Shown piece by piece: positions 437 through 25,155 of a stretch of 64,000 nt of DNA (the first letter of the stretch is position 1; every line of letters begins with the position of its first letter). The notes below the pieces were generated by a model. It saw only the letters and a list, made by a program, of their open reading frames with translations. It was not told where the DNA came from and searched no databases. Location of the stretch: positions 37,045,001 through 37,109,000 of the forward strand of contig NC_092568.1 of NCBI RefSeq assembly GCF_037975245.1, given 5' to 3'. Position numbers and translations under genes: made by a program. This stretch comes from Apostichopus japonicus (lineage: Eukaryota; Echinodermata; Holothuroidea; Aspidochirotida; Stichopodidae).

Positions 437-3400
437 CTGTAACAGATCATCGACATGGTAAATAGGATGAGTCTTCGGAACTCTGGCCACTGAGTTAGCA
501 AAGGGAAAGATGGCCTTTGAATTCCATGAACTCGAAGCTGATTTTTGAAGCCCGACTGAGTAGTAAATCTGAAAACAAAGGAAAATATTATGAAATAGAT
601 ACATGAATGATTGAAACAAAAACACAAAATATTTCCATATTCATAGTGCAGATAACTTATTATACATGGGGATGCATTGTCATGTTCGCCCAGATTTGAT
701 GTCAGTAAAAAACGTTTTAAACTTTTTTTTCCCAGTGAAAGAGGATCGAGGGAAGCAACCATTAAAGTACAAATTAATGTCCCATAAATAATTCATAGAT
801 TGAAATTAAATAATTCCAATAAAGTTTGTTGCCCAAGCTGAGGGTATTGCATATGAAAAACTCCAACTGAATGATTTCTGAAAGGAAGTGAGATTTTCTT
901 GTTTTTTTGCTTCATGTCAACTCTTAAAGAAAAGCAAATTGATGAAGTTTTCCAGTACAATTCTTATCCAAACAAAATGTTGTCTTTCACCAAGAAGAAA
1001 ATATTGCATCATTCATAAAACAAAAAAGGAATTTTTTCCTAACCAATTAACGCGATAATTTTCCCTGCCTGGACACGAACTGTCTCCATCAGCCCCATTT
1101 TCCATTCCATTCCATTTTCATCATTGAATAGTCATAAATTATTTCCAGTGTTGTAAATTTTATGAAACAATATTAACAATAATCCCTTATGTCAGTCTCC
1201 CCCCCCCCCAAATAATAAGTAAGAAAATGTATATAAAAAAATGAGACGAAGAATATTGAATTAACTCTTAATTAATTGCTATTATTGTCTTTGGTTCCTA
1301 TTAAATTATATTCTGTTAATTCTGATACAAAGGATTTTTTTAATTACAACTAAGGCTTTCCTCAATTTCTCTGTGCATATTTTCAGTCGGCTTAGAGCCA
1401 TATTTGACGTTTCGTTTTTTTCTCAAATTTGAAAATTGATAGATTGCTAGTATTTTCCGATGAAAGACTTTTAATGAGTAGCACGGTGACATTTGCGAGA
1501 GAAAGAACAAATATTCAACAATCGAAACAACAGAATATAGAAATTTTCATTAGAAATATGTCAAGTTTTGTGTAAAGTTTTTTTAATTAAATTTAGAAAC
1601 AGATCAAAACAAAGATAAATTATTTGCTATAATTCATGTTGTTTTGCAGATTGTTTGATTTTTGAACTGCCATGAATCATGAATAGTTTATAACAGGCTT
1701 AAATAATGTTACTATACGATATGGGAAAGCTTCTCTTTAACATATGTACTGTAAGCAGTTGGATAAAAGGGCCAGTTATAGGCAAGCATTCAGCAGGTAT
1801 ATACTATGTAATCATCAGTTATAGGGTGGCGGGGCAAATTTTAAATATTTTTTTCTTGTTGGCCGGGGGGGGGGGGGCGTGCAGGAGATGCTCAGGGACG
1901 GGTGGACGGATATATCAGCAGGCTGTTAGTTTGCTTGAAAAACAATACTCAAGGAAGAATCAAGTTCTCTTAATTAACTCACCTCTCGTTTTTTGTCGCT
2001 AAGTACATCAAATTGACAACCTGTTGCGTCGATCCACTGTCTGACTCCATCAGGTGTACCAAAGGATATGAAGATTACCTTACAGTTGAGTCCTTTGAGC
2101 ACATCTGCCTGCTCCTGTAGAGCAGACAGGTGCTGACGTCACGAGGGTCATTGAGAATGCCGGAGAAGGACTAAGAGGATGCTATTCTCCCCTGTCAGGA
2201 AGTCGGACAGAGTGGTTTGTCTGGAACAAGAGATAGTTATTCCCAGTTAAACACTCCTTTCTGCGCCATGCCTCGCTCGTTTCAGATTAAGTTTTCATTT
2301 TCCAATTTATTTTTCATTTTGAGCTGAACATGCAATTTTAAAGTGGCCGATTGAATCTGCTCGACAAGTTTTCCAAACCTACTAAGAACTTTATTTAATG
2401 TAATGTTATTTGCAATAAAAGAACTAACTAACTTTCCTAGGTTTTCTTCACGAAATGAAAAGATAGCGGTGAGTAATATATGACTTCAATTCGATCCACA
2501 ACATTTTCAAGCCTAGATACTTTACATATATTATTCAACACATTTATAAAAGCATATGAAAAAATCAGTTCTTTCAACTTTTATTTCATATTTAACTTTA
2601 AAATGAAACTTGACTTTTTTAAATCAATGTCCAATACTGTTATAGAATCTTTTCATAAGAAAATATTGATTGTTTTCTATGAAATCAGCTCATAAAGCTC
2701 CTTTAAGAATTGACTGACCAGGCCCCTCGTGGTAAGACAAGCAAATATTGGCTAAGTTGCTGAATTTTTAAGCCAATTGCATTGTTCTGACTAGAGCTGG
2801 TCTGAATGATAAATACTTGGTCTCATTATTAAAAGGACATTTAACTATAAATGAAGCGCCTGCCATTAACTTAATACATCAATCCATAATATATACAGTG
2901 ATGTACTGTCATGTATGTGATTACAAATTAGAATGTGAATTTGTGAGCATACAAATTCATGAAATTCTATTTTCTATCTTAAATAGTATTCAAATCAATC
3001 TTGACAAATGCATTTGTCTATAAACACTCCACACTTTGGAAACAGCTTTACAAATTGCATTCATCATCCAGGACTTACTTCAAGGCATTAAAGTCAGGTA
3101 CGTAGCCAGCCTTGTTCATGTGAGGTGACAAAGCCAATTGTCTATACACGTTTTAATATTATCATAATATTTGCTTTTTATATAGCGCTTTATACCAGCG
3201 ATAGGTCTCAAAGCGCTTTACAGACGTTATATCACCCCTGGTCAATGATAACCTGTCCAGAGACAATCCCGCCAGTCGGCAGCAGTTATATACTGCGCCC
3301 AATGACAAGTTACCTTACAGGTACCCATTTAACCCCTGGGTGGAGAGAGGCAAATGAGATAAAGCATCTTGCCCAAGGACACAACGTAATGAACTAGACA

Positions 3401-6279
3401 GGAATCGAACCAGCAATCCTTGGATCACGAGTCCGACGCCTTAGCCAATTGGCCACCACGCTCTCTCATGACTCTTACAGACTGAACATCTGTAAGACTA
3501 CCTTTGACAAGTATGTACTCTATCAGTACTGTGAGACTTGCCACTTGGTATTACGTTTGAGATTAACCATAAATAACATGTATGCCTGCTGCATGTCAGA
3601 CTAGGTGACAAACAATAACTGACCACGACGAAATTCATTCCGTTTTCAATTAGATCCTGTCCTCCATAAACCAAAATATCCCAAAAGTATGAAATGAATT
3701 ACTTTTCTGTCCGACCATCAACAAGGATCACATCAACTGGGGCTCTGGAGCCCACTTTCGGCTCAGTTACCGCTGAAGGATTTCTCACCATCCTCTGATC
3801 ACAGTTTAGCAATGATTCATCCCATTCATCCTGAAAAGAAGATGATTTTTAGTTGCCTTGTAAAGATAATTATAAATAATATTTACATAGTGTGATGAAA
3901 GCATGTTAAAGAAACATCGGCACAGAATAAGGCTGTTTTTCTTCTTTAGGATGCAAATGAAAGGGATCAGTAACCATTAGTCATGGTTACCACGCTTCTA
4001 AACAAAGGAAATTCCAGATTTGTTTGAGACCAAAGCATGTTTTACGATTTTTTCCTTCATGACCTACAAACTTTTGAGGACCTTAAGTTTAGGCTGCCAT
4101 GTGTAATAATCCTAACGATTGCAGCTCTTGCGAAATGAATGCTGCCCCACTGACTTTTGGTCGGAGGATGTTGAAAAAGCCACGAAGCCCAACATGGCAT
4201 GCCATATTCTTACCTTTGCCATCTCTAAAATGAAGGCTGCGACGGAAATTTGCAACTTGCAGATGACAATAAATTATTTTTTTCCGTATTTCTTTGATGT
4301 TATAGCCCTGCGCTGAGTGACAAGGAGCCTATCATATTTTGCACTATTGCTGTGTTACTCTATGCTGAACTTCCCTGTATTAACTTCCACTACTTTACCT
4401 TGCAATCATCCAATTGTTCTGATTTGAGACACACTATACCATACCCGATACTGCACTACTGGGGCATGGTCTCTGGATTGTATAGTCTCAAACATTTATG
4501 TACTGTTCTGAACCATTCTGCAAAATGGTCTGCACCTTATGCAGTATAATGATCTGCGATGTACTGCGGTTTCTCACACTATTCTGCACTGTTTTGAACT
4601 ACCCTGCCAATGTTCTTCAACTCACCGACCATGCGTTTTAATGCAATGCGCTTCACTGAATTTCCATGAACAAGTTCACGTCAGTACAGTAGTTGCTAGT
4701 GGTGTTAAAAGCAACATGTAACCAACAGCATGTAAGCTAAGTATGTATCAAGTAATGACAATGCTTTGTAATATCCCTGCTCTTCGGGGAATAAACCTAT
4801 CCTGCACTATACTGCCTAACCCTACACTGCCTCTGAGTAACTGAATTTACTTTCTGACCCTGTAGGTGTCCTATTCCACCCGTAGTATTCTGTTATGTAT
4901 GTTTCTTTGCTGTCCTAGCTGCAATGTTCTGCCCTGCAATACCTTAATATACCAGGGGTTTTCGATTCAATTTATACGAGAGCCGGAGAGAACATTGGTG
5001 GTAGCAAAGAGGGAAAGAGTACTAAGATCTCACTATATCTAGATTGAACAATGAGCAGACTAGGCCAGTAGGTTCCCTAGGCCTATGATCTTGAGGGCCT
5101 GTCCATCTGATTAGGGCAAGATTCTTGGTTGAAATCTATTGTAGGCTACACTTGGCCCACATGCCATCTCTTGAGAACCCACACCAGATACCCTTTCCTT
5201 TCCCTTTTTGTGTTGTGCCTTTTGCAAAAATTTCTAAGAAACAGTATCTTGGTTTGCCATGTTGATTCCACTCATCATTCATGATTATTCTTTAAGCAAA
5301 CTGATACAATTATATTGGTCTCATGGTGAGTGTGTCCTTGTGTGGTTAGTTTCTGTTCTTTTAATATGTTAATAAAGTACTTGGAATATAATACCCTTTC
5401 TATAACATTTAATACACCATACATGGTAAACCTTACACATTCTTGATGAAAGTACTTTACCTCCAACTCTAGCAGTTCATCAAAGCAATCTCGTACATCG
5501 GGATCACGAGAAAACTTCTCAAACAATGATTCATAGGCACTTCTGGTTCCAACTTTCAAACTGGAATAAAGAGAAACTTAATGAATTACTATCATGGGAG
5601 AGCTTAATTCTGATATTTGGTAAATTACCAAATTCCGGTAGTGGTACACAACTGTTACGCCCCTGCCCCTCCAAAGAAAGTACAAGGGGCACTATAGTTT
5701 CTTACATAGTGAAATATTAAAGTGTTGTTTGTCATCACACAATATCATTATATTTATGCCCACATGTAACAACTGTATTCCACGTTTGGATATTATCTGT
5801 GGAGTTTTTACAAATATAAATATATAAAAATAACCTTTTTTCGCCTAAATGGTCCCAAAAATATTCAGCCCAAACAAAAGTAGGTTCAAATACCTATATC
5901 CCCCCCCCCCCCTACAGATTGAACCCAAAAAATGTCAACCCAAATGATCCCAAAAATATTGGGTCCCACAAATTCGGGCCGAAACAGTGTGTCCCAAAGT
6001 GCATTTGAGGTGAAATAAACTTTGCCCTCCCATCAACCCAAGCAATATCCTCCTCCTTTGACAATGAAACTCACTCCCTGAAGACAGTTGCATATGCCCT
6101 GATTAGTGGACCACCAGTGGAACCGATGAGGTCATTGAAATCTGTAAGAGATAGATACAGTAGTTAGGTCACAAACAGATCACGCATGATAAAACCGATA
6201 CAGGGTTACAGTACCTCTACAAATCATGTGTAGAGAGTTTTAGTCATAGTTATATATACAGTTATAGTAATATAGTTAC

Positions 6280-6329
<50 letters not shown>

Positions 6330-7956
6330 ATATATATATCTAATATATATCTAATATATAGCTATATATAGTTATATATATAGCTATATATAGTTATATA
6401 TATAGTTATATAGGTCACAAGGTAACATTCCTGTCCAGGGACTGACAGACCTCCTGGAAGTGGGAGGTCTCAGGAGTAGAGTGGGGTAGGGCTAAAGGAT
6501 ATATAGATTAGAAATATCCGGTTTAGCAGGATTTTTCAGAGGTAAGGTGACCCTTTTATAAAGATTTCCAAGGTTACATAAAAACCAAGAATCTCCCCAA
6601 ATCTTTCTTGTGATAGATATGTATAGTCATTTTCAAATCCCCCCCAACCCCGGGCGCAAATAGGAGAAAGTGTAAAACAACATTGTTTTAACACAATTAT
6701 ATTTGAAGAGTCAGGTAATTGTACTGGATACATAACTTATATTTATTGAAACATTAACATTAATAATTAATTTAGACACATTTAGGCGTAACAGTTACAT
6801 TTACATCTTGAGTAAATTTCATTCTAGCGTACACTTAGTCAATAGCCAATACGTAGCCAATAAATAAAGCACCAATTTCCACCGAGATAAATGTAATATG
6901 TGGGCAAGTTAAATTTTGCAAGTCATTTAAGAATGTTTGCATTGCTGTAATGTGGTAATAAATATTAATAATTAATTTAGACACACCTCTGTGATTGCCT
7001 TTTCAAAAGGTATACTTATTGTAGGCGCAACAGTTACAACTGTATACATCTTAAGTAAAGTTCATTCCAGCGAACGCTTAGTCAATAGCCAATAGACAAG
7101 CCAATAGATAAACAGCATTTTCCACCGAGATAAACGTAATATGTGGCAAGCTAAATTTTGCAAGTCATTGAAGAGTGTTTGCAATGCTGTACTGTGGAAG
7201 TCCAACCAAAAATATATTTATATAATATTAACCAGGCGGCAAAAAGGAAAAAATATCAGTAATTTCCAAGACTTTTTTACAAATGTACTTCTGCTTGTTC
7301 ACCCGAAATAGCTCTTGTAATATAAGTGTTCTGCTTCCTATCATGAGATAACATGTTTGAAAGGTGTTCAGAGTTTGACTGCTAGTGACCAAGATGATAT
7401 TTGACCTCCATCAAAAAACAATTCAGTTTTTCTATTCAATGTCACGAATCCGCATTCCAAGTATAAAAAATATCCATGCTTCCTAACTTGACATATTGTG
7501 TTTACATTGTTTTCATTTTTTTACCTCTGGCGACCTCAGATGACCTTTGATCTCCAAAAAAACAATCGGTCGTTCTTTTGTCATCGAAACCAATAAATGG
7601 TGATATCCAAAGAAAGTAGCTTAGGCCTGTGGTTGAACTACTGGGCAGAGAAGTGCAAATATTCTATTAATGAAAAGTGATGACGACTGGGTAGGACTAC
7701 GAGTTGTAGGAAATATTAATCTTACGCCTATAGTGAATACGGTCAAACATTTGACCTATGCCTAGGTCATTGGTAATAATCGGTATTAATAAAAAGGGTA
7801 AAAAAGTATACTGACGGCACTCTCCATACCCTTTTCTTTTTCTTCTTTATTTCGTTGGCTCCCATCTTGTAAAGTTGACTTCAATGTTTGAAATGAATCA
7901 AGGAGTTGTGCTTTATCAACATCGGTCGAAGCTGATGCTCCGTCAACCTGAGCCAT
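437..7956 (-). CDS. SELENOL: Selenoprotein L-like protein, copy A (U-x-x-U redox protein; last exon off-window)
   Basis: Coding exons in transcript order are 7956-7812, 6141-6075, 5560-5461, 3830-3703, 2220-1983 and 568-437, totalling 810 nt or 270 codons with the frame kept at every junction. All use GT-AG sites (donors GTATAC, GTGAGT, GTAAAG, GTAATT, GTGAGT, GTAAGC). The start is the ATG at 7956, giving MAQVDGASAS. The C-terminal half is an AhpC/TSA-like thioredoxin fold of the PRXL2 type: LLVLLRHSQ, then UGA-P-S-UGA at codons 171 and 174, then RQHLSALQ, VIFISFG and a DVLSDKKREIYYSVGL segment. Two Sec codons spaced U-x-x-U are the hallmark of selenoprotein L, thought to form a diselenide bond in thiol/selenol redox chemistry. 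The N-terminal 150 residues are a helical extension I do not recognise. The terminal exon and SECIS would lie left of position 1. Family assignment is recognition of motif and fold, not a search. Confidence 0.85.
569..1982. other. Intron of SELENOL copy A
   Basis: Intron between the exons at 2220-1983 and 568-437. It contains AT-rich sequence with poly-C (about 1200) and poly-G (about 1864) runs that differ in length between the two copies. No coding, RNA or mobile feature was recognised. The open frame at 1706-2002 is intronic on the opposite strand. Confidence 0.6.
1983..2220 (-). CDS. SELENOL: Sec-encoding exon of SELENOL copy A (two in-frame UGA codons)
   Basis: The exon follows an acceptor with a C/T-rich tract ending TTGTTCCAG and ends at donor GTGAGT. 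Entering in phase 2 from the previous exon, the only frame that stays open on both sides contains TGA at 2150-2148 and TGA at 2141-2139, separated by CCC TCG. Both flanks continue the conserved fold: SILLVLLRHSQ before, RQHLSALQEQADVLKG after. Any frame avoiding the TGAs destroys the match to the peroxiredoxin-like fold. The same exon in copy B keeps both TGAs, so they are not sequencing errors. Confidence 0.88.
3155..3466 (-). mobile_element. tRNA-derived SINE, present only in copy A
   Basis: On the minus strand a tRNA-like head holds an A-box region (GTGGCCAATTGGCTAAGGCG) and a perfect B box (GGTTCGATTCC). The tail carries the AAAGCGCTATATAAA-type 3' motif widespread in marine invertebrate SINEs, followed by an AT-rich end. 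The equivalent place in copy B (about 19,970-20,230) has a different, shorter sequence, so this SINE arrived after duplication or replaced deleted sequence. It sits in the intron between the exons at 3703 and 2220. Confidence 0.8.
4214..4255 (-). CDS. SELENOL: Possible extra 42-nt exon of SELENOL copy A
   Basis: This segment lies between the exons at 5461 and 3830, both of which meet in phase 0. It ends at a strong donor (GTAAGA) and would start after CTGCAAG. It adds 14 residues (LQISVAAFILEMAK) without changing the frame and gives a continuous helical peptide. The acceptor is weak and, in copy B (20940-20981), the AG is AT. It may be a real exon, a skipped cassette, or chance; the gene model reads through without it. 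Confidence 0.35.
6276..6415. repeat. (TA)n microsatellite in SELENOL copy A intron
   Basis: Long runs of TA with ATATAGT/ATATAGCT interruptions, shared with a shorter, differently arranged tract in copy B at 23,370-23,460. Confidence 0.9.
6740..7200. repeat. Two-unit tandem repeat of about 205-240 bp in the first intron, copy A
   Basis: The block starting near AATTTAGACACA recurs 205 bp later with shared landmarks (GTCAATAGCCAATA, CCACCGAGATAAA, GCAAGTCATT). The same two-unit array is in copy B at about 23,925-24,400, where the first unit is longer, so the array predates the segmental duplication. Confidence 0.75.
7375..7600. repeat. Partial TGACCTTTGACC-type repeat, copy A
   Basis: Shares TTTGACCTCCATCAAAAA, CGCATTCCAAGTATAAAAAA and GACCTTTGATCTCC landmarks with the family at 15,380. 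Present in both duplication copies. Confidence 0.55.
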
Positions 7957-13300: not shown

Positions 13301-13384
13301 GTAACTTCCCCTATCTTAACGTGTAAAAGGCAAAAATGGACAGCATTCCGTTAAGAGAGTACCCATAAAGATTTGTTTGTCACT

Positions 13385-13940
13385 TCCAGCTACATTCACA
13401 TGCGATGATTTAGAAAAATGCTTTCATAAAATCTCTATGGGAACAAGCTTAACAATTCCATTTCCCCCTTTCTACTTCATATAGGATCTTTATCAGGTTT
13501 CTAACAGGAGATATTCGAAATGTTTTTTTTTTTTTTTGGTATTAAACAGGTACCCCACTAAGAATGAGCTAAGTTCCAACAAGATTCACATGTTTTACCG
13601 ATTTTGAACCTAATCTTCATAAAATCCTTCCGGGAAACCTGTTTAACAATATAAATTTTCTTCAAGCTATAAGAAAGTCATTCCTCAAAATGAAATGTTT
13701 TGACTAAAAAGAAAAAAACTTATACAAATTTGTTATAAAATATGCTGTGACACTGCTACTAAATTATAATAAACGTGACATATTCTGAAATACTTAAATA
13801 ACCTAATTACATTTGTAAAGTTGCGTTGTTAAACAAATACCCCTCGCAGATCGAGTAAAGTTCCAACAAGATTCATACGTTTTAACGATTTAGAATCTAG
13901 CCTTCATAAAATCCTCCCGGGAAACCTGTTTAACAATTTA
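13385..13940. repeat. Three related blocks sharing a TTCATAAAATC core
   Basis: Blocks near 13,395-13,470, 13,565-13,650 and 13,850-13,940 share the order ATTCACATG, GATTT, TTCATAAAATC, GGGAAACCTGTTTAACAAT. The last two are about 287 bp apart and roughly 85 percent identical. Function unknown. Confidence 0.65.
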
Positions 13941-14857
13941 CACTTTTCCTCTCTCCTGCCTTTTCCTGCGGAAACTCCTTCAATTATGAAACAGTAAAAT
14001 TAATTTTGATAAATTTATGCAGTGTTGTATGTTATTTTATGCATTTTTAGACTTGCAAAAGTTAGTTCCTGTAGTTACTTAGATTTCCATTTGAAAACAA
14101 TTTATAATGTCTGTGAAAGAAAAGAAAGAAAAAAACAAAACAAAACAAAATAAAACCTTAATTTAAATTGATAAACCTTAATTTAATTTAAATAAAGATA
14201 ATTTTAAGTAAACAAAATCAGACGCTCCAATCCTTGTTATTATATGTAACTATTATTTTCTGAATAACTTCTCCAGCTTTTATATCACAATATGTGCATC
14301 ACATATATGGCTCAACTTTTCTTCGTAACTATTTTTGATACTGCATTTCACTAAACTTTTTGGCCATGTACAATCTTTGGTGTACTATGTAACTACTATT
14401 TTCCAGTACCAGTGCCCAAGTGTGATGTACTCTCGAGTTTTAATGGTTCAGAGTACCAGGGTCAATCCCTTGGACTATGAACTGGTACACTTAAACACAC
14501 GAGGTAATACTATCAAACTCATCACAGGCCTTAATTGGTTCTCATTCGTCAGGATAAAGGCCACTTGACAAGTGCTAACATGCAAACTTTCTAATAGGGG
14601 ACAGGACAATGGGAAACCCGCCCCCTCCCCATGCAAGGCAGACAGTATCAAGCATTTGCGCTCCCACCCAACAAAATATTCCAGCTCTGCACGACTAAGG
14701 GCTCGGTGTCGAGTGCAGGTCGAGATGAAGTGAGAGTGCACAGTTGGTTCACAGTTGGTCAACAGCTCTGAATCTTGAACCGGGGCCCCTGGCACTCAAG
14801 CTAATCAACTGCATTCACCTCAGGTGAATATTTACTGTAGAACAAGATTCAACTCAC

Positions 14858-14965
14858 CTTCAAAGTTTCAATGAGTTGGTCTACAGGTGAACGATCCATG
14901 GGCGTAATGCCGCAATGAACGAATACAAAGTTTCCATCTTTGTCCAAAATGATGTCTCCCCCATT
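14858..14965 (-). CDS. SELENOL: C-terminal exon 7 of SELENOL copy B
   Basis: The acceptor is TTTGTCTTCACAG and the donor GTGAGT; 36 codons, phase 0 at both ends. The peptide starts NGGDIILDKDG and carries FVFVHCG and DRSPVDQLIETLK. This is the equivalent of the segment that closes the thioredoxin fold in PRXL2C (GTLILGPGNNIHFIHR region). It is the only copy of this exon in the window, since its partner in copy A would lie about 2.3 kb left of position 1. Confidence 0.85.
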
Positions 14966-17900
14966 CTGTGAAGACAAACATTAGAAGAAAAGTTTTATAC
15001 AAAGTTGACAAATTCAGTCTTGAATCACTTTTCAAAATGTTCACAAGTGAGAGTTTAGCTCAAAGCAGGAATCATGGTTTTATTCTCAGTTTGAGATGGT
15101 ATGGCAGCTTTTCTGCAGTATTCATAAAATCTGAAATATCAAAGCAAGAAAACCTTTTGGATTCCTTGTCATACAATTTGCTCAAAATTCAAAGTTCTGT
15201 AACTATCTGACTAATAGAGCAAGTGAGTTGAATTCGTCCAAGAATTAAGTGAGAACCAGAAAAGATTGTAGAAATCCGTTGTGAGCATCAACCATGTCAT
15301 TCACTCATAAAGATTTTACATCATAGAATTTAAACCAAAATGTTTCAATATCCATATTTTGAATTTATTATGTTTAAAAGGCTTATCAGTTTTTGATGCC
15401 TGTCGACCTTATGTGATCTTTGACCTCTACTAGTTTCCACAGGATTCTTGCACTCACCAAGCTGGATCTACATATAATGTATGAAATTCAACAAAGATGT
15501 ACTTTTTGAGTTATCGCGGTCACAATTTTTGTTGACCTCATTGAACCCAAATGACCATTTAAACTTCACAGAAAACAATGGGCGTCTTGTACTCAATAGG
15601 ACGGATCCACATTCCAAGTATGAAATTAATCTTCTATTAACTTTTGAGTGCCATCACCATCGCATAGATTAGTTTTTCCTCCGGCTAGTAATAAAACAAT
15701 TGGTGTCTTTTAGTTCATTCAAAAGGGGCTTACTATGAGCAACGTGGATACATTTTCAAAATAGTCCAACACAAGGGCCACATTTATTTGAACTTTTGTT
15801 TAATAATAACAATAACTAACTATGTAAATGTGATATCTCACATGAAATATAAACTTTCACTGTTTTAGAAAGTTTTCGGCGTGGAAACGTGTGACTAAAC
15901 ATTACTGTCAGTGGGCATCCCTGTGTTCCTTTTACAGTGATTCCATTAAGAGTGATAGTAAGTTTCCTGCTGTAACTAGTTGCAACCAGTTATAGTATTC
16001 CCACATTTGAGTGGAGTTGGTCGAGCTTGCAAAATCTTTCTTGACAAATGTAGTATACCGGTCCGTGGGAAGATAGTAAAACCATATGAGTTTCCTTTTC
16101 CGATGATACGCTTAGGCCAAACTTTTCTGTTGTACGCGTAGTGAGCCTCCAGGAGGATCATCAGCAAAAAAAGTTATTATATTTACCTAAAGTAAGTCTA
16201 CCCTCCTCCTCCCCCCCCCCCCTTCGCCCTCCTCTCCTCACAGAGCAACTTTCGTCAATGAGCATATTTAGACTGCCTTGAGCTGGTAAAGATTACATCG
16301 ATATCTCTATTTCAAGGAAACTTAGTAAGTATATGAGATACAGTTTGTTACACGTTGTTGCACACGTAGAAACTTGTTATTGGTTACCTTAGCTTACCAT
16401 TTAATACCCTTGTTAAAAACAATGTTACTATTGCATGCCAATAGACAAATCTCCTCCCCCCCCCCCTTCCATATATCTGTCAAAGAACTTGAGGCGCCTT
16501 GTTATGAATTAAATTAATGAAAACATTTGTATTTGTATTGAACATATTTAGACTGCCTTGAGCTGGTAAAGATTACATCAGTGCCATTATTTCAAGGAAA
16601 CTTAGGAAGTATATGAGATACAGATTGCTACACGTTGTTGCACACGTAGAAACTTGTTATTGGTTACCTTAGCTTACCATTTCATACCCTTGAACAGTGT
16701 TACTATTGCATGCCAATAGACAACTCCTCCCCAACCTCCCCCCCCCCAACCTCCCAACCCCCTCCCCCTCCATACATCTGTCAAAGAACTTAAGGCTTTT
16801 TGATTGGATGTTTTTACTTTATTTTGCAAGTTTAATACACATTTTTTATCAAAGGAAGAAATTGCTTAAGATTTATATTTGCGTGATTTAGCAGATCCAT
16901 GTTTTCGTATGTAATCGTAGTCATCACTATGAAAACCAATGCACATGCATGATAAGATTTCAAATCTGCGTCACTTAGAGGAGAAGGGAGCCTAGCCGGT
17001 CTTTTCTACCTTATGAAACAGAGGTGAGGGAACCTAATTGCCTCAAACAAATCAAACAAGTCTATTGTTAGAAATCATGTTCAAACAGTCACGTCAGGCG
17101 ATCAACATCCATCTCCCACCATGTGTGACATCCTATTTACACTTGGAGGTTTTTGTTTAGCTTTTTTTTTTGGTTGGGGGGGGGGGGGCTTTTTCTGTTT
17201 TGGTGGAGATGATATATATAACAGTTGTTAAAGCAACACCAACTGTACATAGATTCATTAACACCCATGATGTTTCTACCTGTAATATTTGCAAACACGG
17301 CCTCTACTAACAACAGGAAATAATGTAATTAATGAAATAGAAGTCAAATTGCATCACCGAGGGCTATTTGGGGATGTAATGTTTAGACTTGTACATGGTA
17401 TCTCCAAGAATGGACAAAACAATTCCTTAATAACTGCTCAAAACTTCAACCCCATCACCTGCTATCAAACATGGTACGACAATGTTTTCTGTTTGCATTC
17501 TCTTTAACAAATATAATTACCCCGTTATAGTTACACAAGAGGGTCAGTATATATAACGCTACTAAGCTGTTCCACTCTCGTTTACCTGTAACAGATCATC
17601 GACATGGTAAATAGGATGAGTCTTCGGAACTGTGGCCACTGAGTTAGCATGGGGAAAGATGGCCTTTGAATTCCATGAACTCGAAGCTGATTCTTGAAGC
17701 CCGACTGAGTAGTAAATCTGAAAACAAAGGAAAATATTATGAAATGGATACATGAATGATTGAACAAAAACACAAAATATTTCCAAAACGTTTTTTTTTA
17801 TAATTTTTTTTTTAAACGTTTTAAACTTTTTTTTTCCGTGTGGTCCCAGTGAAAGAGGATCGAGGGAAGCAACCATTAAAGTACAAATTAATGTCCCATA

Positions 17901-20900
17901 AATAATTCATAGATTGAAATTAAATAATTCCAATAAAGTTTGTTGCCCAAGCTGAGGGTATTGCATATGAAAAACTCCAACTGAATGATTTCTGAAAGGA
18001 AGTGAGGTTTTCTTGTTTTTTGCTTCATGTCAACCCTTAAAGAAAAGCAAATTGATGAAATTTTCCAGTACAATTCTTATCCAAACAAAATGTTGTCTTT
18101 CACCACGAAAAAAATATTGTATCATTCATGAAACAAAAAGGATTTTTTTCCTAACCAATTAACGCGATAATTTTCCCTGCCTGGAGACGAACTGTCTCCA
18201 TCAATCCCATTTTCCATTCCATTCCATTTTCATCATTGAATAGTATAAATTATTTCCAGTGTTGTAAATTTATGGAACAATATTAACAATAATCCCCTAT
18301 GTCAGTCTCCCCCCCCCCCCCAAGTAATAATTAAGAAAATGTATATAAAAATTGAGACGAAGAATATTGAATTAACTCTTAATTAATTACTATTATTGTC
18401 TTTGGTTCCTATTAAATGATATTCTGTTAATTCTGATACAAAAGATTTTTTTTAATTACAACTACGGCTTTCCTCAATTTCTCTGTGCATATTTTCAGTC
18501 GGCTTAGAGCCATATTCGACGTTTCGTTTTTTTTTCTCAAATTTGAAAATTGATAGATTGCTAGTATTTTCCGATGAAAGACTTTTAATGAGTATAGCAC
18601 GGTGACATTTGCGAGAGAAAGAACAAATATTCAACAATCGAAACAACAGAATATAGAAATTTTCATCAGAAATATGTCAAGTTTTGTGTGAAGTTTTTTT
18701 TTTGTTAAATTTAGAAACAGATCAAAACAAAGATAAATTATTTGCTATAATTCATGTTGTTTTGCAGATTGTTTGATTTTTGAACTGCCATGAATCATGA
18801 ATAGTTTATAACAGGCTTAAATAATGTTACTATACGATATGGGAAAGCTTCTCTTTAACATATGTACTGTAAGCAGTTGGATAAAAGGGCCAGTTATAGG
18901 CAAGCATTCAGCAGGTATATACTATGTAATCATCAGTTATAGGGTGGCGGGGCAAATTTTAAATATTTTTTTCTTGTTGGCCGGGGGGGGGGCGTGCAGG
19001 AGATGCTCAGGGACGGGTGGACGGATATATCAGCAGGCTGTTAGTTTGCTTGAAAAACAATACTCAAGGAAGAATCAAGTTCTCTTAATTAACTCACCTC
19101 TCGTTTTTTGTCGCTAAGTACATCAAATTGACAACCTGTTGCGTCGATCCACTGTCTGACTCCATCAGGTGGACCAAAGGATATGAAGATTACCTTACAG
19201 TTGAGTCCTTTGAGCACATCTGCCTGCTCCTGTAGAGCAGACAGGTGCTGACGTCACGGGGGTCATTGAGAATGCCGGAGAAGGACCAAGAGGATGCTAT
19301 TCTCCCCTGTCAGGAAGTCGGACAGAGTGGTTTGTCTGGAACAAGAGATAGTTATTCCCAGTTAAACACTCCTTTCTGCGCCATGCCTCGCTCGTTTCAG
19401 ATTCATTTTCCAATTTATTTCAGCTTTCATTTTGAGCTGAACATGCAATTTTATAGTGGCCGACTGAATCTGCTCGACAAGTTTTCCAAACCTAACAAGA
19501 ACTTTATTTAATGTAATGTTATTTGCAATTGAAAGAACTAACTAACTTTCCTAGAGTTCGTAACGAAATGAAACGATAGCGGCAGTAATATATGACTTCA
19601 GTTCGATCCACAACATTTTGAAGCCTAGATACTTTACATATATTATGCAACACATTTATAAAAGCATATGAACAGATCAGCACTTTCAAATTTTGTTTCA
19701 TATTTAGCTTAAATGAAACATAACTGTTTCGTGATTACAAATTAGAATGTGAATTTGTGAGCACACATATTCATGAAATTCTATTTTTCTATCATAAATA
19801 GTATTAAATTCAATCTTGACAAATGCATTTGTCTATAACACTCCACACTTTGGAAACAGCTTTACAAATTGCATTCATCACCCAGGACTAACTTCAAAGG
19901 CATTAAAGTCAGGTACGTAGCCAGCCTTGTTCATATGAGGTGGCAAAGCCAATTATCTATACACTTTTTAATAAGAGAATTTAAGTTTACTTAACGCTTG
20001 AATGGGTATGACAATTCATTACAACATGTAGGCTGTACCCTCTGTTATGCCTTCAGATGTTAGAGGTGGGGATCACACAATTTGACTGATATCAATTTGG
20101 GGAGGGGTTCTAAGGGTGAGAGGTACTGTCCCCGCTTTGAACTCGAAACTTCGTGTTGAGGGTACTTTGCCTTCTGCTCACCGTGCAAACCCACCCCAAT
20201 GCTTCCTCTGGCTATGCCGCTGGATGTATGAATCTTACAAACTGAACATCTGTAAGACTAACTTTGACAAGTATATACTCTATCAGTACTGTGAGACTTG
20301 CCACTTGGTATTACGTTTGAGCTTAACCATAAATAACAAGTATGCATGCTGCATGTCAGACTAGATGACAAACCATAACTGACCACGACGAAATTCATTC
20401 TTTATTTAATTACGTCCTGTCCCCCATAAACCAACCTATTCCAAATGTGTGAAATGAATTACTTTTCTGTTCGACCATCAACAAGGGTCACATCGACTGG
20501 GCCTCTGGAACCAACTTTTGCCTCAGTTACCGTACTTTTCACCATTCTCTGATCACATTTTAGCAATGATTCATCCCATTCATCCTGAAAAAAAAAATGA
20601 TTTTAGTTGTAAAGATAATTATAACTCATATTTACATAGTGTGATAAATGCATGTTAAAGAAACATTGACACAGAATGAGGCTGTTTTTCTTCTTTAGGA
20701 TGCAAATTAAAGTGATCAGTAACCATTAGTCATAGTTGTCACGCTTCTAAACAAATGAAATTCCAGATTTGTTTGAGACCAAAGCATGTTTTACGATTTT
20801 TTTCCCTACAGGACCTACAAACTTTTGAGGACCTAATGTTTAGGCTGCCACTCTTGCGAAATGAATGCTGCCCCATTGACCTTTGGTCGGAGGATGTCGA

Positions 20901-23900
20901 AAAAGCCATGAAGCCCAACATGGCATGCCATATTCTTACCTTTGCCATCTCTACAATGAAGGCTGCGACGGAAATTCGCAAATTGCAGATGACAATAATT
21001 TATTTTTTCGTATTTCTTTAATGTTATAGTCCTGTGCTGAGTGACAAGAAGCCTATCATATTTTGCACTATTGCTGTGTTACTCTATGCTGAACTTCCCT
21101 GTATTAACTTCCACTACTTTACTTTGCAATCATCCAACTGTTCTGATTTGAGACACACTATACCATACACGATACTGCACTACTGGGGTATGGTCTCTGG
21201 ATTGTATAGTCTCAAACATTTATGCACTGTTCTGAATCATTCTGCAAAATGTTCTGCACCTTATGTAGTGTAATGATCTGCGATGTACTGCGACTTCCAG
21301 TGCGCATTCACTACACGTCATGTCTCACACTATTCTGCATTGTTTTGAACTACCCTGTCAATGTTCTTCAACTCACCGACCATGCGTTTTAATGCAATGC
21401 GCTTCACTGAATTTCCCTGAACAAGTTCACGTCAGTACAGTAGTTGCTAGTGGTCTTAAAAGCAACATGTAACCAACAGCATGTAAGCTAAGTATGTATC
21501 AAGTAATGACAATGCTTTGTAATGTCCCTGCTCTTCGGGGAATAAACCTATCCTGCACTATACTGCCTAACCTATACACTGCCTTGTGCTGTGCTACCCA
21601 CCAAGGTTCAGCTCTGAGTAACAATTGCCTTTACTTTCTGACCCTGTAGGTGTCCTATTCCACCCACAGTATTATGTTATGTATGTTTCTTTGCTGTCCT
21701 AGCTGCAATGTTCTGCCCTACAATACCTTAATATACCAGGGGTTTCGATTAAATTTATACGAGGGCCAGAGAGAACATTGGTGGTAGCAAAGAGGGAAAG
21801 AGTACTAAGATCTCACCATATCTAGATTGAACAATGAGCAGGCTAGGGCAGTAGGTTGCCCAGGCCTACGACCTGGAGGGTCTGTCCACCTGATTAGTGC
21901 AAGAATCTGGGTTGAAATATATTGTAGGCCACACTTGGCCCACATGCCATCTCTTGAGAACCTACAACAGAAACTATTCCCTTTTCCTTTTTGTTTTATG
22001 AATTGTGCATACAATTTCTAAGAAACAGTATTCTTGGTTTGCCATGTTAATTCCACTCATTAATGTTTATATTATTCTCTAAGCAAACTGATACAACTAT
22101 ATTGGACTCATGGTGAGGGTTTCCTTGTGTGGTATTTTCTTTCTCTTAGTATGTCAATAAAGTATTTGGAATAAAATACCCTTTCTATTACATTTAATAC
22201 ACAATACAAGGTACACCTTACACCTTATTGAAGAAAGTACTTTACCTCCAACTCTAGCAGTTCGTCAAAGCAATCTCGTACATCGGGATCATGAAAGAAC
22301 TTTTCAAACAATGATTCAAAAGCACTTCTGGTCCCAACTTTCAAACTGAAATAAAGAGAAACTTAATGAATTACTATCATGAGAGAGCTTAATTCTGATA
22401 TTTGGTAAATTACCAAATTCTGGTAGTGGTACACAACTGTTACACCCCTCCCCCTCCCCTCCAAAGAAAATACAACGAATACTATATTTTCTTACATAGT
22501 GAAATATTAAAGTGTTGTATGTTATCACACAATATCATAATATTTATGCCCACAAGTAACAGTTATGGTCAAGTGGTTAGGGCAGTGGACTTGTGATCTA
22601 AGGATAACAGGTGCGAGCCCTGGCCAGATTATTGCGTTGTGTCCTTCACCCAGGTGTATAAATGGGGAAATGCGAGGTGACTTGTAAATAATATAGTTGC
22701 GTGCGCCGGTTTGTGGCTGCACCCTATGGGAAGTCCCCCAGAGGACACGTGGCTGTGGTGCCCCAGGAGATATTGTTTGAATTGTGCACACTTTGGAGTG
22801 TAGGTGTGACAAGTTACCAATGACCTGGGTTAAGTACAAAGCGCATAGAACTTCTGGATTATGCGCTATATAAATAACGGGGTAATAATAATAATAATAA
22901 TAAACCAACAACTGTATACCAAGTTTGGATATTATCTGTGGCGGTATTGCAAATTAAAAATGTTGGTCCTTCCCCAAAATAACCTTTTGCGCCTAAATGG
23001 TCCGAAAAATATCCAGCCCAAACAAAGTGGCTCAAATACATTTAGGCCCCCCCCCCCTCCCCTACAGATTAAACCCTACAAAATGTAGACCCAAATGATC
23101 CCAAAAATATTGGGTCCCACAAAACATGGGCCGAAAAAGTGTGTCCCAAAGTGCCTTTGAGGTGGAAATAAGCTTTGCCCTCCCATCACCCCAAGCAATA
23201 TCCTCCTTCTATGGCAATTAAACTCACTCCCTGAAGGCAGTTGCATATGCCCTGATTAGTGGACCACCGGTGGAACCAAGGAGGTCATTGAAATCTGTAA
23301 GAGATAGATACAGTAGTTAGGACACAAACAGATCATGCATGATACAGGGTTACAGTACCTTAACAAATCAGATATATATATATATATATATACAGCTATA
23401 TATATACAGCTATATATATATATATTAATATAACTATATATTATATATATAGTTATATTGGTCACAGGGTTACATTCCTGTCCAGGGACTGGCAAACCTG
23501 GAAGCGGAAGGTCTCATGTGTAGAGTGGGATAGGGCTAAAGGATATATAGATTAGAAATCTCAGGTTTACTAGTATTTTGCAGAGGTAAAGTGACCCTTC
23601 TATACAACTGCACGAGTTTCAGATTTTGGCACTGTACAACAGGCAAGATCACTGAACTATCACTAGATGCATTGTAGCTAAAAGAATGGTATGCATGTGC
23701 CTTTAAAATAATTACAAATTTCCAATGTTTCATAAAAACCAAGAATCTTCCCAAATTCTTCTTGTGATTGATATGTATGGTAATCTTAAAATCCTCCCCC
23801 CCCCCCCCCCCCACGTCAAAAATTCGGGCCAAATAATTGAAAGTGTAAAACATCATTGTTTTAAGACAATTCTATTTGCAGTTTCAGGTAATTGTACTGG

Positions 23901-25155
23901 ATACATAACTCATATTTATTTAAACATAAATATTAATATTTAATTTAGACACAGCTCTGTGATTGCCTTTTCAAAAGTTATATTTACTGTAGGCGTAACA
24001 TGTAGTTACATTTACATCTAGAGTAAATTTCATTCCAGCGTACACTAAGTCAATAGCCAATAAATAAGCCAATAGATAAAACAGCACTCTCCACCGAGAT
24101 AAATGTAATATGTGGCAAGCTAAATTTTGCAAGTCATTGAAGAATATATGCAATGCTGTACTGTGGTAATAAATATTAATAATGAAATTAGACACACCTC
24201 TGTGACTGCCCTATTCAAAATGTATATTTGCTGTATGCGCAACAGTTACAACTATATACATCTTAAGTAAAGTTCATTCCAACGTGCGCTTAGTCAATAG
24301 CCAATAGATAAGCCAATAGATAAAACAGCATTTTCCACAGAGATAAACGTAATATGAGGCAAGCTAATTGAAGCGTGTTTACAATGCTGTACTGTGGCAG
24401 GCTTACCAAAAATGTATTTATATTATATTAACCAGACAGCAAAAAGAAAAATAACAGTGGTTTCCAAGACTTCTTTTATCAAATGTACTTCTGCTTGTTC
24501 ACCCGAAATAGCTCTTGTAATAATGTGCTGATTTCTGTTATGAGATATCATGTTTAAAAGGTTTTCAGAGTTTGACTGCTGGTGACCCAGATGATATTTG
24601 ACCTACATCAAAAACAATTGAGTTTATCTATTCAATGTAACGAATCCGCATTCCAAGTATAAAAAATATCCATGCTTCCTAACTTGACATATTGTGTTTA
24701 CAAAGTTTTCAAAATGTTTACCTCTGGTGACCTCAGATGACCTTGATCTCCACCAAAAAACAATTGCGGCGTTCTTTTGTCATCGAAACCAATTAATGAT
24801 GCCATCCAAAGAAAGTAGCTTAGGCCTGTAGTTGAACTACTGGGCAGAGAAGTGCAAATATTATATTACTGGAAATTGATGACGACTGGGTAGGACTACG
24901 AGTTGTAAGAAATATTAATCTTAGGCCTACAGTGAATACGGTCAAACCTTAGACCTATGCCTAGGTCATTGGAAATAATCGGTATTAATAAAGAGGCTAA
25001 AAACGTATACTGACGGCACGCTCCATACCCATTTCTTTATCTTCTCTATTTCGTTGGCTCCCATCTTGTAAAGTTGACTTCAATGTTTGAAATGAATCAA
25101 GGAGTTGTGCTTTATCAACATCGGTCGAAGCTGATGCTCCGTCAACCTGAGCCAT
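14858..25155 (-). CDS. SELENOL: Selenoprotein L-like protein, copy B (U-P-P-U variant; terminal exon unresolved)
   Basis: Coding exons in transcript order are 25155-25011, 23294-23228, 22345-22246, 20584-20463, 19335-19098, 17717-17586 and 14965-14858, totalling 912 nt or 304 codons in one frame. It mirrors copy A exon for exon. The fourth exon is 6 nt shorter, an in-frame loss. The two UGA codons are at codons 169 and 172. The intervening codon is CCG where copy A has TCG, so the motif is U-P-P-U. The seventh exon supplies the C-terminal strand and helix of the fold (GGDIILDKDGNFVFVHCG, then SPVDQLIETLK), matching the end of PRXL2-type proteins. It ends in phase 0 at donor GTGAGT, so at least one more exon with the stop codon and 3' UTR lies between 12,790 and 14,857. 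Three possible acceptors there have good pyrimidine tracts (before 14598, 14115 and 13694) and would add 14, 3 or 14 codons including stop; none is proven. Confidence 0.83.
15380..15690. repeat. Dispersed TGACCTTTGACC-type repeat
   Basis: Landmarks are GATCTTTGACCTCTACT, CTTGCACTCACCAAGCTGGA, TTCAACAAAGATGTACTTTT, GAGTTATCGCGGTCACA and CATTCCAAGTATGAA. The same series recurs at 30,370-30,800 and in part at 7,375-7,600 and 24,555-24,790. Non-coding middle-repetitive family. Confidence 0.7.
16255..16800. repeat. Two-unit tandem duplication of 281 bp
   Basis: AGACTGCCTTGAGCTGGTAA occurs at about 16,270 and again 281 bp later. Both units run through the same ACACGTTGTTGCACACGTAG block and end at GCATGCCAATAGACAA followed by a C-rich tract. 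No coding content. Confidence 0.8.
19098..19335 (-). CDS. SELENOL: Sec-encoding exon of SELENOL copy B
   Basis: Same acceptor and donor as the copy A exon and the same 238-nt length. TGA occurs at 19265-19263 and 19256-19254, with CCC CCG between. The flanks LLVLLRHSQ and RQHLSALQ are unchanged. Retention of both UGA codons in a diverged paralogue supports translation as selenocysteine over decay. Confidence 0.87.
20041..20228. mobile_element. Probable MITE fragment in SELENOL copy B intron
   Basis: The right end CTCTGGCTATGCCGCTGG and a left end near 19,913 (CAGGTACGTAGCCAG) look like inverted termini of the CAGGCGCGTAGCC element class seen at 56,048. In copy A only the left end remains (about 3,098-3,112) next to the SINE. 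Confidence 0.4.
22566..22904 (+). mobile_element. tRNA-derived SINE with (ATA)n tail, present only in copy B
   Basis: The head has an A-box-like GGTCAAGTGGTTAGGGC and a B-box-like GGTGCGAGCCC. The body ends in GCGCTATATAAATAACGG and then (AAT)n. Copy A at about 5,765 has the uninterrupted empty site (CCCACATGTAACAACTG), so this is a clean insertion after the duplication. It lies in the intron between the exons at 23228 and 22345 of SELENOL copy B. Confidence 0.85.
23370..23462. repeat. (TA)n microsatellite in SELENOL copy B intron
   Basis: TA-rich repeat with TACAGCTATATA interruptions; shorter than its copy A counterpart. Confidence 0.9.
23925..24400. repeat. Two-unit tandem repeat of about 240 bp in the first intron, copy B
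   Basis: Counterpart of the copy A array at 6,740-7,200. The first unit keeps the CTCTGTGATTGCCTTTTC segment that copy A has lost from its first unit. Confidence 0.75.
24555..24790. repeat. Partial TGACCTTTGACC-type repeat, copy B
   Basis: Copy B counterpart of the 7,375-7,600 block. Confidence 0.55.

What the first reader, a model, noticed from the sequence alone, without database searches (positions are those of the whole stretch)
1983..2220. Two in-frame UGA codons form a U-P-S-U motif: a selenoprotein L-type gene that ordinary gene prediction will break
The sequence shows an exon bounded by good splice sites whose only fold-compatible frame contains TGA at codons 171 and 174. The flanks LLRHSQ and RQHLSALQ belong to a PRXL2/AhpC-like thioredoxin fold, where redox Cys or Sec would sit at exactly these positions. 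Selenoprotein L, known from aquatic animals, has this U-x-x-U motif and forms a diselenide. A standard annotation would stop at the first UGA or skip the exon.
Basis: partly seen in the sequence, partly recalled or inferred. Interest (0 to 1): 0.92.

Follow-up and report, generated by a model that had tools for sequence, protein, structure and literature searches.

The report
Selenoprotein L gene family in echinoderm
This stretch very probably carries a gene for selenoprotein L, a redox protein whose two selenium-containing amino acids are written as stop codons; the animal, probably an echinoderm, has six related genes, and several of them carry more than one hairpin of the kind that lets cells read those stops.

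Summary
Confirmed: exon 2220-1983 (minus strand) has AG/GT borders and its conserved frame holds TGA at 2150-2148 and 2141-2139 (U-P-S-U). Spliced with seven other exons it gives 302 residues with Sec at 165 and 168 (not 171 and 174), matching the SelL-related NCBIfam family end to end (8e-35; 120 bits, cut-off 120). Six such loci were found: five U-x-x-U, one U-x-x-C; a second complete gene lies at window 25155-14102. A, B, C and the modelled parts of D and E have no other in-frame stop. SECIS-like elements lie downstream on the sense strand of A-E; one passes Rfam's threshold and tops a genome-wide scan, the others are below it, and none in the window reaches it. By homology A and B have three copies, C, D and E two; fish SELENOL is reported to have one. 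eEFSec, SepSecS and glutathione peroxidase exons with in-frame TGA are present; tRNA-Sec was not found. New, as far as my searches show, are the expansion and the repeated SECIS-like elements. Expression, Sec insertion and the diselenide are untested.

The parts
1983..2220 (-). Gene A exon 5, the Sec exon (79 codons plus the last base of a split codon), U-P-S-U
   Evidence: AG/GT borders; counterparts at five other loci
2148..2150 (-). TGA, Sec165 of gene A
2139..2141 (-). TGA, Sec168 of gene A
7830..7956 (-). Gene A exon 1 (ATG at 7956)
   Evidence: same exon in B and C
6075..6141 (-). Gene A exon 2
5461..5560 (-). Gene A exon 3
   Evidence: counterparts in D and E
3703..3830 (-). Gene A exon 4
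437..568 (-). Gene A exon 6; exons 7 and 8 (ending T-L-TAA) and three SECIS-like elements follow outside the window in L001 (7095-6988, 6256-6248; 6100-5965, 5817-5680, 5618-5534)
25029..25155 (-). Gene B exon 1 (second complete gene)
23228..23294 (-). Gene B exon 2
22246..22345 (-). Gene B exon 3
20463..20584 (-). Gene B exon 4 (two codons shorter than in A)
19098..19335 (-). Gene B exon 5, Sec exon, U-P-P-U (Sec163 and Sec166)
17586..17717 (-). Gene B exon 6
14858..14965 (-). Gene B exon 7
14102..14110 (-). Gene B exon 8, coding part (T-L-TAA)
13817..13952 (-). Gene B SECIS-like element 1 (Rfam SECIS_1 at 13850-13916, 22.3 bits, below the gathering score of 35)
13526..13665 (-). Gene B SECIS-like element 2, by homology to element 1 and to gene C's element; not reported by Rfam
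13384..13429 (-). Gene B SECIS-like element 3 (core ATGA...AAA...TGGA), weakest; not reported by Rfam

Best explanation
Gene A (and gene B beside it) encodes a selenoprotein L of about 300 residues: a region of about 122 residues with no Pfam match, then a peroxiredoxin/thioredoxin-like domain with a U-x-x-U redox motif. Two UGA codons are read as selenocysteine under direction of SECIS hairpins in the last exon's 3' UTR. Shown: gene structure, frame, paralogues, family match, SECIS-like elements, parts of the Sec machinery. Inferred: that the mRNA is made and both UGAs are decoded; that the two Secs form a reversible diselenide and the protein works as a peroxiredoxin-like oxidoreductase; that the repeated SECIS-like elements help decode two UGAs three codons apart.
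For: Six loci with the same Sec exon, TGA/TGA in five and TGA/TGC in one. Eight-exon models of A, B and C with all inner borders AG/GT and a shared T-L-TAA end; five modelled exons each of D and E, all AG/GT. No other in-frame stop in A, B, C or the modelled parts of D and E. Adding the rest of the spliced protein to the Sec exon raises the SelL-related score from 64 to 120 bits and the match from profile positions 18-92 to 8-172 of 173. D against E after the second UGA: dN/dS 0.29, dN>=dS in 6 of 1000 bootstraps. SECIS_1: E 35.2 bits (gathering score 35), D 34.0 and 18.5, C 25.2, B 22.3, A 21.5, all on the sense strand downstream; E's is the top hit and the only one over cut-off of 7 matches in the genome scan. 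SepSecS, eEFSec and GPX exons with an in-frame TGA.
Against: No SECIS in the window reaches Rfam's threshold; A's own best is 21.5 bits (E 0.2 in an 801-base search), was not listed in the 44.5 kb search, and 23 of 200 shuffles of its 3' region did as well in my scanner. SECIS_1 matches below cut-off also ring in 4 of 14 control genomes. Constraint after the UGAs is weak for A/C (dN/dS 0.68, dN>=dS in 99 of 1000) and B/C (0.65, 81 of 1000), and A/B gives 1.30 on 11 changes. I did not check that the TGA of the GPX exons sits at the Sec position. No RNA or protein data were available.
Confidence: 0.93

Rival explanations
1. The gene is real but UGA is a stop: a truncated 164-residue protein is made and the rest is decaying.
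For: Weak constraint after the second UGA in A/C, B/C and A/B; tRNA-Sec not found.
Against: The 134 codons after the UGAs have no stop in A, B, C, nor the 134 compared in D and E, with D/E dN/dS 0.29; the match to the family runs through exons 6 and 7 to profile position 172 of 173; both TGAs are kept in five loci whose Sec exons are as little as 38% identical.
Confidence: 0.04
2. A tandem block of pseudogenes with chance stop codons.
For: The A/B/C copies are local duplications, and short exon-1 remnants lie nearby in L001.
Against: All modelled inner borders are AG/GT, and no frameshift or further stop is seen in A, B or C; dN/dS before the UGAs is 0.31-0.37 for the A/B/C pairs.
Confidence: 0.02
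3. The extra SECIS-like copies (A2, A3, B2, B3, C3, the upstream element of D and E) are inactive by-products of 3' UTR duplication; one element per gene works, as reported for vertebrates. This is compatible with the best explanation of the gene itself.
For: Rfam does not report A2, A3, B2, B3 or C3 even in small regions, nor E's upstream element; in gene C an AATAAA at +266 follows the first element, so the second, at +487, may fall outside the mRNA. PMC3316567 reports a single SECIS for SelL (passages), and PMC2874816 notes that the upstream SECIS of human Sep15 is non-functional (passages).
Against: All ten cores aligned (of twelve identified; B's first and E's upstream were not included) keep ATGA, AAA and TGGA while their helix letters differ; Rfam independently marks two elements in D (34.0 and 18.5 bits); the upstream elements of D and E are equalled by 7 and 2 of 200 shuffles.
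Confidence: 0.5

Closest known systems
Selenoprotein L (SELENOL/SelL), aquatic animals
   Same: Two Sec in a U-x-x-U motif in a peroxiredoxin/thioredoxin-like domain; eukaryotic SECIS downstream; SelL-related profile NF040769 covered almost end to end.
   Different: Six related loci in one genome, against at most one per species in the six invertebrates of PMC3473315 Table 1 (passages); two or three SECIS-like elements per gene in A-E, against one reported in vertebrates (PMC3316567, passages); one paralogue is U-x-x-C.
PRXL2 / AhpC-TSA_2 (SelU-like) proteins
   Same: Pfam AhpC-TSA_2 2.6e-17, 63.7 bits; the model of the Sec exon also matches human prostamide/prostaglandin F synthase (Foldseek rank 31).
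   Different: One Sec/Cys or a C-x-x-C site instead of two Sec (recalled); the SelL-related profile scores higher (120 bits; the profiles differ in length).
SELENOW with U-x-x-U (amphioxus, Ostreococcus) and marine Prx-like 2 sequences
   Same: U-x-x-U motif (PMC7539508; PMC2398784; passages).
   Different: Other families; not compared by sequence here.
Selenoprotein P, human Sep15 and Ciona SelW1 with two SECIS elements
   Same: More than one SECIS or SECIS-like element in a 3' UTR (PMC2874816, passages).
   Different: Other proteins; here the elements sit in SelL genes, and genes A and B have three related copies each.
ResA and AhpE (solved structures)
   Same: Thioredoxin-like fold; ResA is the top Foldseek match (TM 0.75 by query); the second Sec aligns with a cysteine in the five printed AhpE alignments.
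   Different: Bacterial, cysteine-based, distant (13-26% identity in the listed ResA and AhpE rows).

Membership tests
Selenoprotein L | Two in-frame UGA codons as U-x-x-U | tested here: met
   kept in five of six loci
Selenoprotein L | Peroxiredoxin/thioredoxin-like domain of the SelL-related family | tested here: met
   NF040769 8.3e-35, printed as 120 bits at a cut-off of 120; Pfam AhpC-TSA and AhpC-TSA_2
Selenoprotein L | Eukaryotic SECIS element downstream (family in this genome) | tested here: met
   Gene E 35.2 bits, over the gathering score, best of the genome scan; D 34.0 and C 25.2 below it
Selenoprotein L | Eukaryotic SECIS element downstream of gene A itself | tested here: inconclusive
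   21.5 bits, below the gathering score of 35; 23 of 200 shuffles as good in my scanner; support is homology to C and the core shared with D and E
Selenoprotein L | A single SECIS serves both UGAs (vertebrates) | tested here: inconclusive
   Two or three related elements per gene in A-E by homology; which of them work is unknown
Selenoprotein L | Host decodes UGA as Sec | tested here: inconclusive
   SepSecS, eEFSec and GPX exons with in-frame TGA found; tRNA-Sec not found
Selenoprotein L | Diselenide bond between the two Sec | not testable with these tools
   Stated for SELENOL in PMC12822975 (passages); the original 2007 paper is not held
Selenoprotein L | Direct similarity to a fish or ascidian SelL sequence | not tested
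   I had no animal SelL sequence to compare with

The most novel reading that the evidence does not exclude
A lineage-specific expansion of selenoprotein L in an echinoderm in which the 3' UTRs carry arrays of two to three working SECIS elements, an arrangement matched to the need to decode two UGAs only three codons apart, with one paralogue (U-x-x-C) caught on the way between a diselenide and a selenenylsulfide site.
Probability: 0.35. Interest if true: 0.62.

Novelty: new variant of a known kind. Interest (0 to 1): 0.5.

Why it matters
SELENOL has two neighbouring Sec that form a diselenide, and its role is little known (recalled). A genome with six paralogues (U-P-S-U, U-P-P-U, U-R-P-U, U-L-P-U twice, U-P-V-C) and several SECIS-like elements per gene is a natural comparison set for two open matters: why two neighbouring Sec are kept, and whether more than one SECIS helps a ribosome pass two close UGAs. 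Annotation pipelines without a selenoprotein step are likely to break or lose such genes.

Tried and rejected
Bacterial relatives: a genome-contig scan with the six-sequence alignment matched 25 stretches but confirmed no relative; I did not use the allowed second scan. Plasmids: one match in 72,556 records, a Bradyrhizobium peroxiredoxin-like protein, 31% identity, followed no further than its annotation. tRNA-Sec: RF01852 gave 13 matches, none over cut-off; in the two loci read, ARAGORN of 5 genes each as tRNA-Ser; a pattern with up to 2 mismatches had no match. I treat this as inconclusive.

Ending at K-V-S-TGA in exon 7 was considered and rejected: a GT follows the same K in A-F, and an acceptor about 0.73-0.75 kb on gives T-L-TAA in A, B and C. 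For D, E and F I did not find the last coding exon, nor exons 1 and 2 of D and E; F was read in three exons only.

My SECIS scanner is home-made and weak. In one search it finds A1, B1, C1, D's upstream element, both E elements and a candidate in F, but not D's stronger Rfam element and not A2, A3, B2, B3 or C3; it also gives one further hit each in C and D (equalled by 15 and 24 of 200 shuffles) that I do not claim. The copies A2, A3, B2, B3 and C3 rest on BLAST homology and the shared core. F's candidate (2 of 200 shuffles as good) was not supported by Rfam.

Species: the COX1 on contig C35 reads with AAA as Asn at a conserved position (STNHKD) under table 9, and its frame is broken under the vertebrate code. 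That this is an echinoderm, perhaps a sea cucumber, rests on recalled knowledge of such codes and proteins, not on a database result.

Literature searches: 'selenoprotein L' with 'diselenide', 25 papers; two of SelL / selenoprotein / UxxU, 781, 25 listed; 'selenoprotein L' with 'sea cucumber', 1; 'selenoproteome' with 'echinoderm', 3; SELENOL with SELENOJ, 5; 'selenoprotein L' with gene duplication and invertebrate, 6; 'two SECIS elements', 17; two of selenoprotein L / SECIS / Strongylocentrotus, 100, 25 listed. In these listings and in the passages read (PMC3473315, PMC3316567, PMC2874816, PMC2398784, PMC7539508, PMC12822975, PMC9925728; a term search in PMC2375036 found nothing) I saw no report of several SelL genes in one animal or of several SECIS elements in a SelL gene. 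No paper was read whole, and subscription journals are largely not held.

Full report
WHAT IS THERE. Read on the minus strand, window 2220-1983 is an exon with AG before and GT after. In the frame that joins in phase with its neighbours it encodes 79 residues with TGA at codons 24 and 27 and no other stop. The frame from base 2220 has five stops, the frame from base 2218 one TGA and two other stops. The two TGAs are at 2150-2148 and 2141-2139.

THE GENE. The window lies in contig C8 of a 671.6 Mb, 35-contig genome. Comparing the region with its duplicate copies gives an eight-exon gene: window 7956-7830, 6141-6075, 5560-5461, 3830-3703, 2220-1983, 568-437, then, outside the window, L001 7095-6988 and 6256-6248. 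All seven introns are GT-AG. The product has 302 residues, Sec at 165 and 168, and ends T-L-TAA. The exon has 238 bases, so skipping it would shift the frame.

PARALOGUES. A search of the whole genome with the Sec exon finds six places, and a second search with the most distant copy finds the same six: A and B in this window (UPSU, UPPU), C at C8:36954493-36954730 (URPU), D and E, on opposite strands at C8:41.62-41.63 Mb (ULPU both), and F at C8:7.097 Mb (UPVC). B (window 25155-14102) and C were modelled in full: same eight exons, AG/GT inner borders, same T-L-TAA end; B's exon 4 is two codons shorter. Five exons each of D and E were modelled. In A, B, C and the modelled parts of D and E the only in-frame stops are the two TGAs. 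Three exons of F were read and no full model was built.

SELECTION. Before the first UGA dN/dS is 0.30-0.37 in the four close pairs (AB 0.31, AC 0.36, BC 0.37, DE 0.30). After the second UGA it is 0.29 for D/E (dN>=dS in 6 of 1000 bootstraps), 0.68 for A/C (99 of 1000), 0.65 for B/C (81 of 1000) and 1.30 for A/B (11 changes; 662 of 1000). The six distant pairs (A, B or C with D or E) are saturated and uninformative. So purifying selection after the UGAs is clear for D/E and only suggestive for A, B and C. A and B are nearly identical in the Sec exon (dS 0.019) but not in the N-terminal part (dS 0.164), which hints at gene conversion.

FAMILY. The 79-residue exon alone matches Pfam AhpC-TSA (4e-14) and NCBIfam SelL_rel_redox, NF040769 (64 bits). 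The spliced protein reaches 120 bits, the printed cut-off being 120, over profile positions 8-172 of 173, and AhpC-TSA_2 at 2.6e-17; the first 141 residues alone match no Pfam family at E up to 1. A model of the Sec exon from the six paralogues (mean pLDDT 82.4) has strand 13-19 and a helix from 25, so the first Sec sits just before the helix and the second in its first turn, as in thioredoxin-type active sites (the comparison is recalled). Foldseek's best matches are ResA structures, 8 matches at E up to 0.001 in all. In the five printed alignments, all AhpE, the second Sec aligns with a cysteine and the first with a threonine.

SECIS ELEMENTS. At Rfam's gathering threshold the window shows no SECIS. 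With a lax threshold SECIS_1 scores E at 35.2 bits (gathering score 35), D 34.0, C 25.2, B 22.3 and A 21.5, each downstream of its gene on the sense strand; A and B were found only in small searches. In a scan of the whole genome (150 of 13796 candidates scored) E's element is the best of 7 matches and the only one over the cut-off; 4 of 14 control genomes also gave matches, none over it. Homology shows further copies: A has cores at +200, +486 and +673 from the start of exon 8, B at +201 and +488 and a third at window 13429-13384, C at +187 and +487, D and E two each, 271 bases apart. The ten cores aligned, of twelve, share ATGA, AAA and TGGA (B's first and E's upstream core were not included). 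Rfam reports D's second element at 18.5 bits but not A2, A3, B2, B3, C3 or E's upstream element. In A no AATAAA or ATTAAA occurs before +993, so all three may lie in one 3' UTR; in C an AATAAA follows the first element. The consensus fold of A1, A2, B1, B2 and C1 has a basal stem of about 18 pairs; 3 of 37 pairs show a change on both sides, all at the outer end. In my scanner the best element was equalled or beaten by 23 (A), 10 (B), 0 (C), 7 (D, upstream element), 2 (E, upstream element; 14 for its Rfam element) and 2 (F) of 200 dinucleotide shuffles; for A this alone would not convince.

CAN THE ANIMAL READ UGA AS SEC? SepSecS (1.1e-108) and the eEFSec fourth domain (7e-23, none in 14 control genomes) are present, and of nine glutathione peroxidase matches three have a single TGA inside and one a TGA and a TAA (that these TGAs are at the Sec position was not checked). 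The mitochondrial contig reads with AAA as Asn at a conserved place, as in echinoderms and flatworms (recalled); I take the animal for an echinoderm, probably a sea cucumber, from memory of such COX1 and COX2 proteins.

HOW IT PROBABLY WORKS. Inferred: SECIS hairpins in the 3' UTR recruit SBP2 and eEFSec (general knowledge), both UGAs are read as Sec, and the U-x-x-U pair cycles between diselenol and diselenide in a peroxiredoxin-like pocket. [quoted passage not shown] the original 2007 report is not held.

WHAT IS KNOWN. SelL is reported in fish, an ascidian and other invertebrates: Table 1 of PMC3473315 lists one copy in five of six invertebrates and none in Lottia (passages); PMC2874816 mentions Ciona SelL from EST data (passages); PMC3316567 says that one SECIS serves both Sec (passages). 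U-x-x-U is also reported in SELENOW of amphioxus and Ostreococcus (PMC7539508, passages), so the motif alone does not name the family; the profile match does. Two SECIS elements are reported for SelP, human Sep15 (the upstream one non-functional) and Ciona SelW1 (PMC2874816, passages). Against this, six SelL-type loci and repeated SECIS-like elements in SelL genes are, as far as my searches show, not described. The gene itself is a member of a known family; the expansion and the SECIS repeats make it a variant.

Noticed in passing
G000:C8:7097043-7097279 (L006:3043-3279): Sixth paralogue F has U-P-V-C instead of U-x-x-U; a SECIS-like hairpin (ATGA/TGAT) lies 1.4 kb downstream of its exon 7 (2 of 200 shuffles as good), not seen by Rfam.
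   Followed up: partly
window 1983-2220 and 19098-19335: Sec exons of A and B are nearly identical (dS 0.019) while their N-terminal exons are not (dS 0.164): possible gene conversion.
   Followed up: partly
L001:3369-3416 and 4286-4333 (C8:37039369-37039416, 37040286-37040333): 16-residue fragments of SelL exon 1 downstream of gene A: perhaps remnants of further duplication.
   Followed up: no
window 3395-3458 (-): tRNA-like match (31.6 bits) in an intron of gene A, perhaps a tRNA-derived SINE.
   Followed up: no
window 36870-38451 and 43116-43675: Tandem arrays: 143-base unit, 11 copies, 96% matches; 99-base unit, 5.6 copies, 99% matches.
   Followed up: no
window 34848-35279 (-): 143-residue open frame ending in a glycine/arginine-rich stretch, like the end of an RNA-binding protein (the likeness is recalled).
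   Followed up: no
G000:C29:14745-31219: Five separate COX1 pieces on contig C29 besides the mitochondrial contig C35: a mitochondrial duplicate, nuclear insertion or assembly effect.
   Followed up: no
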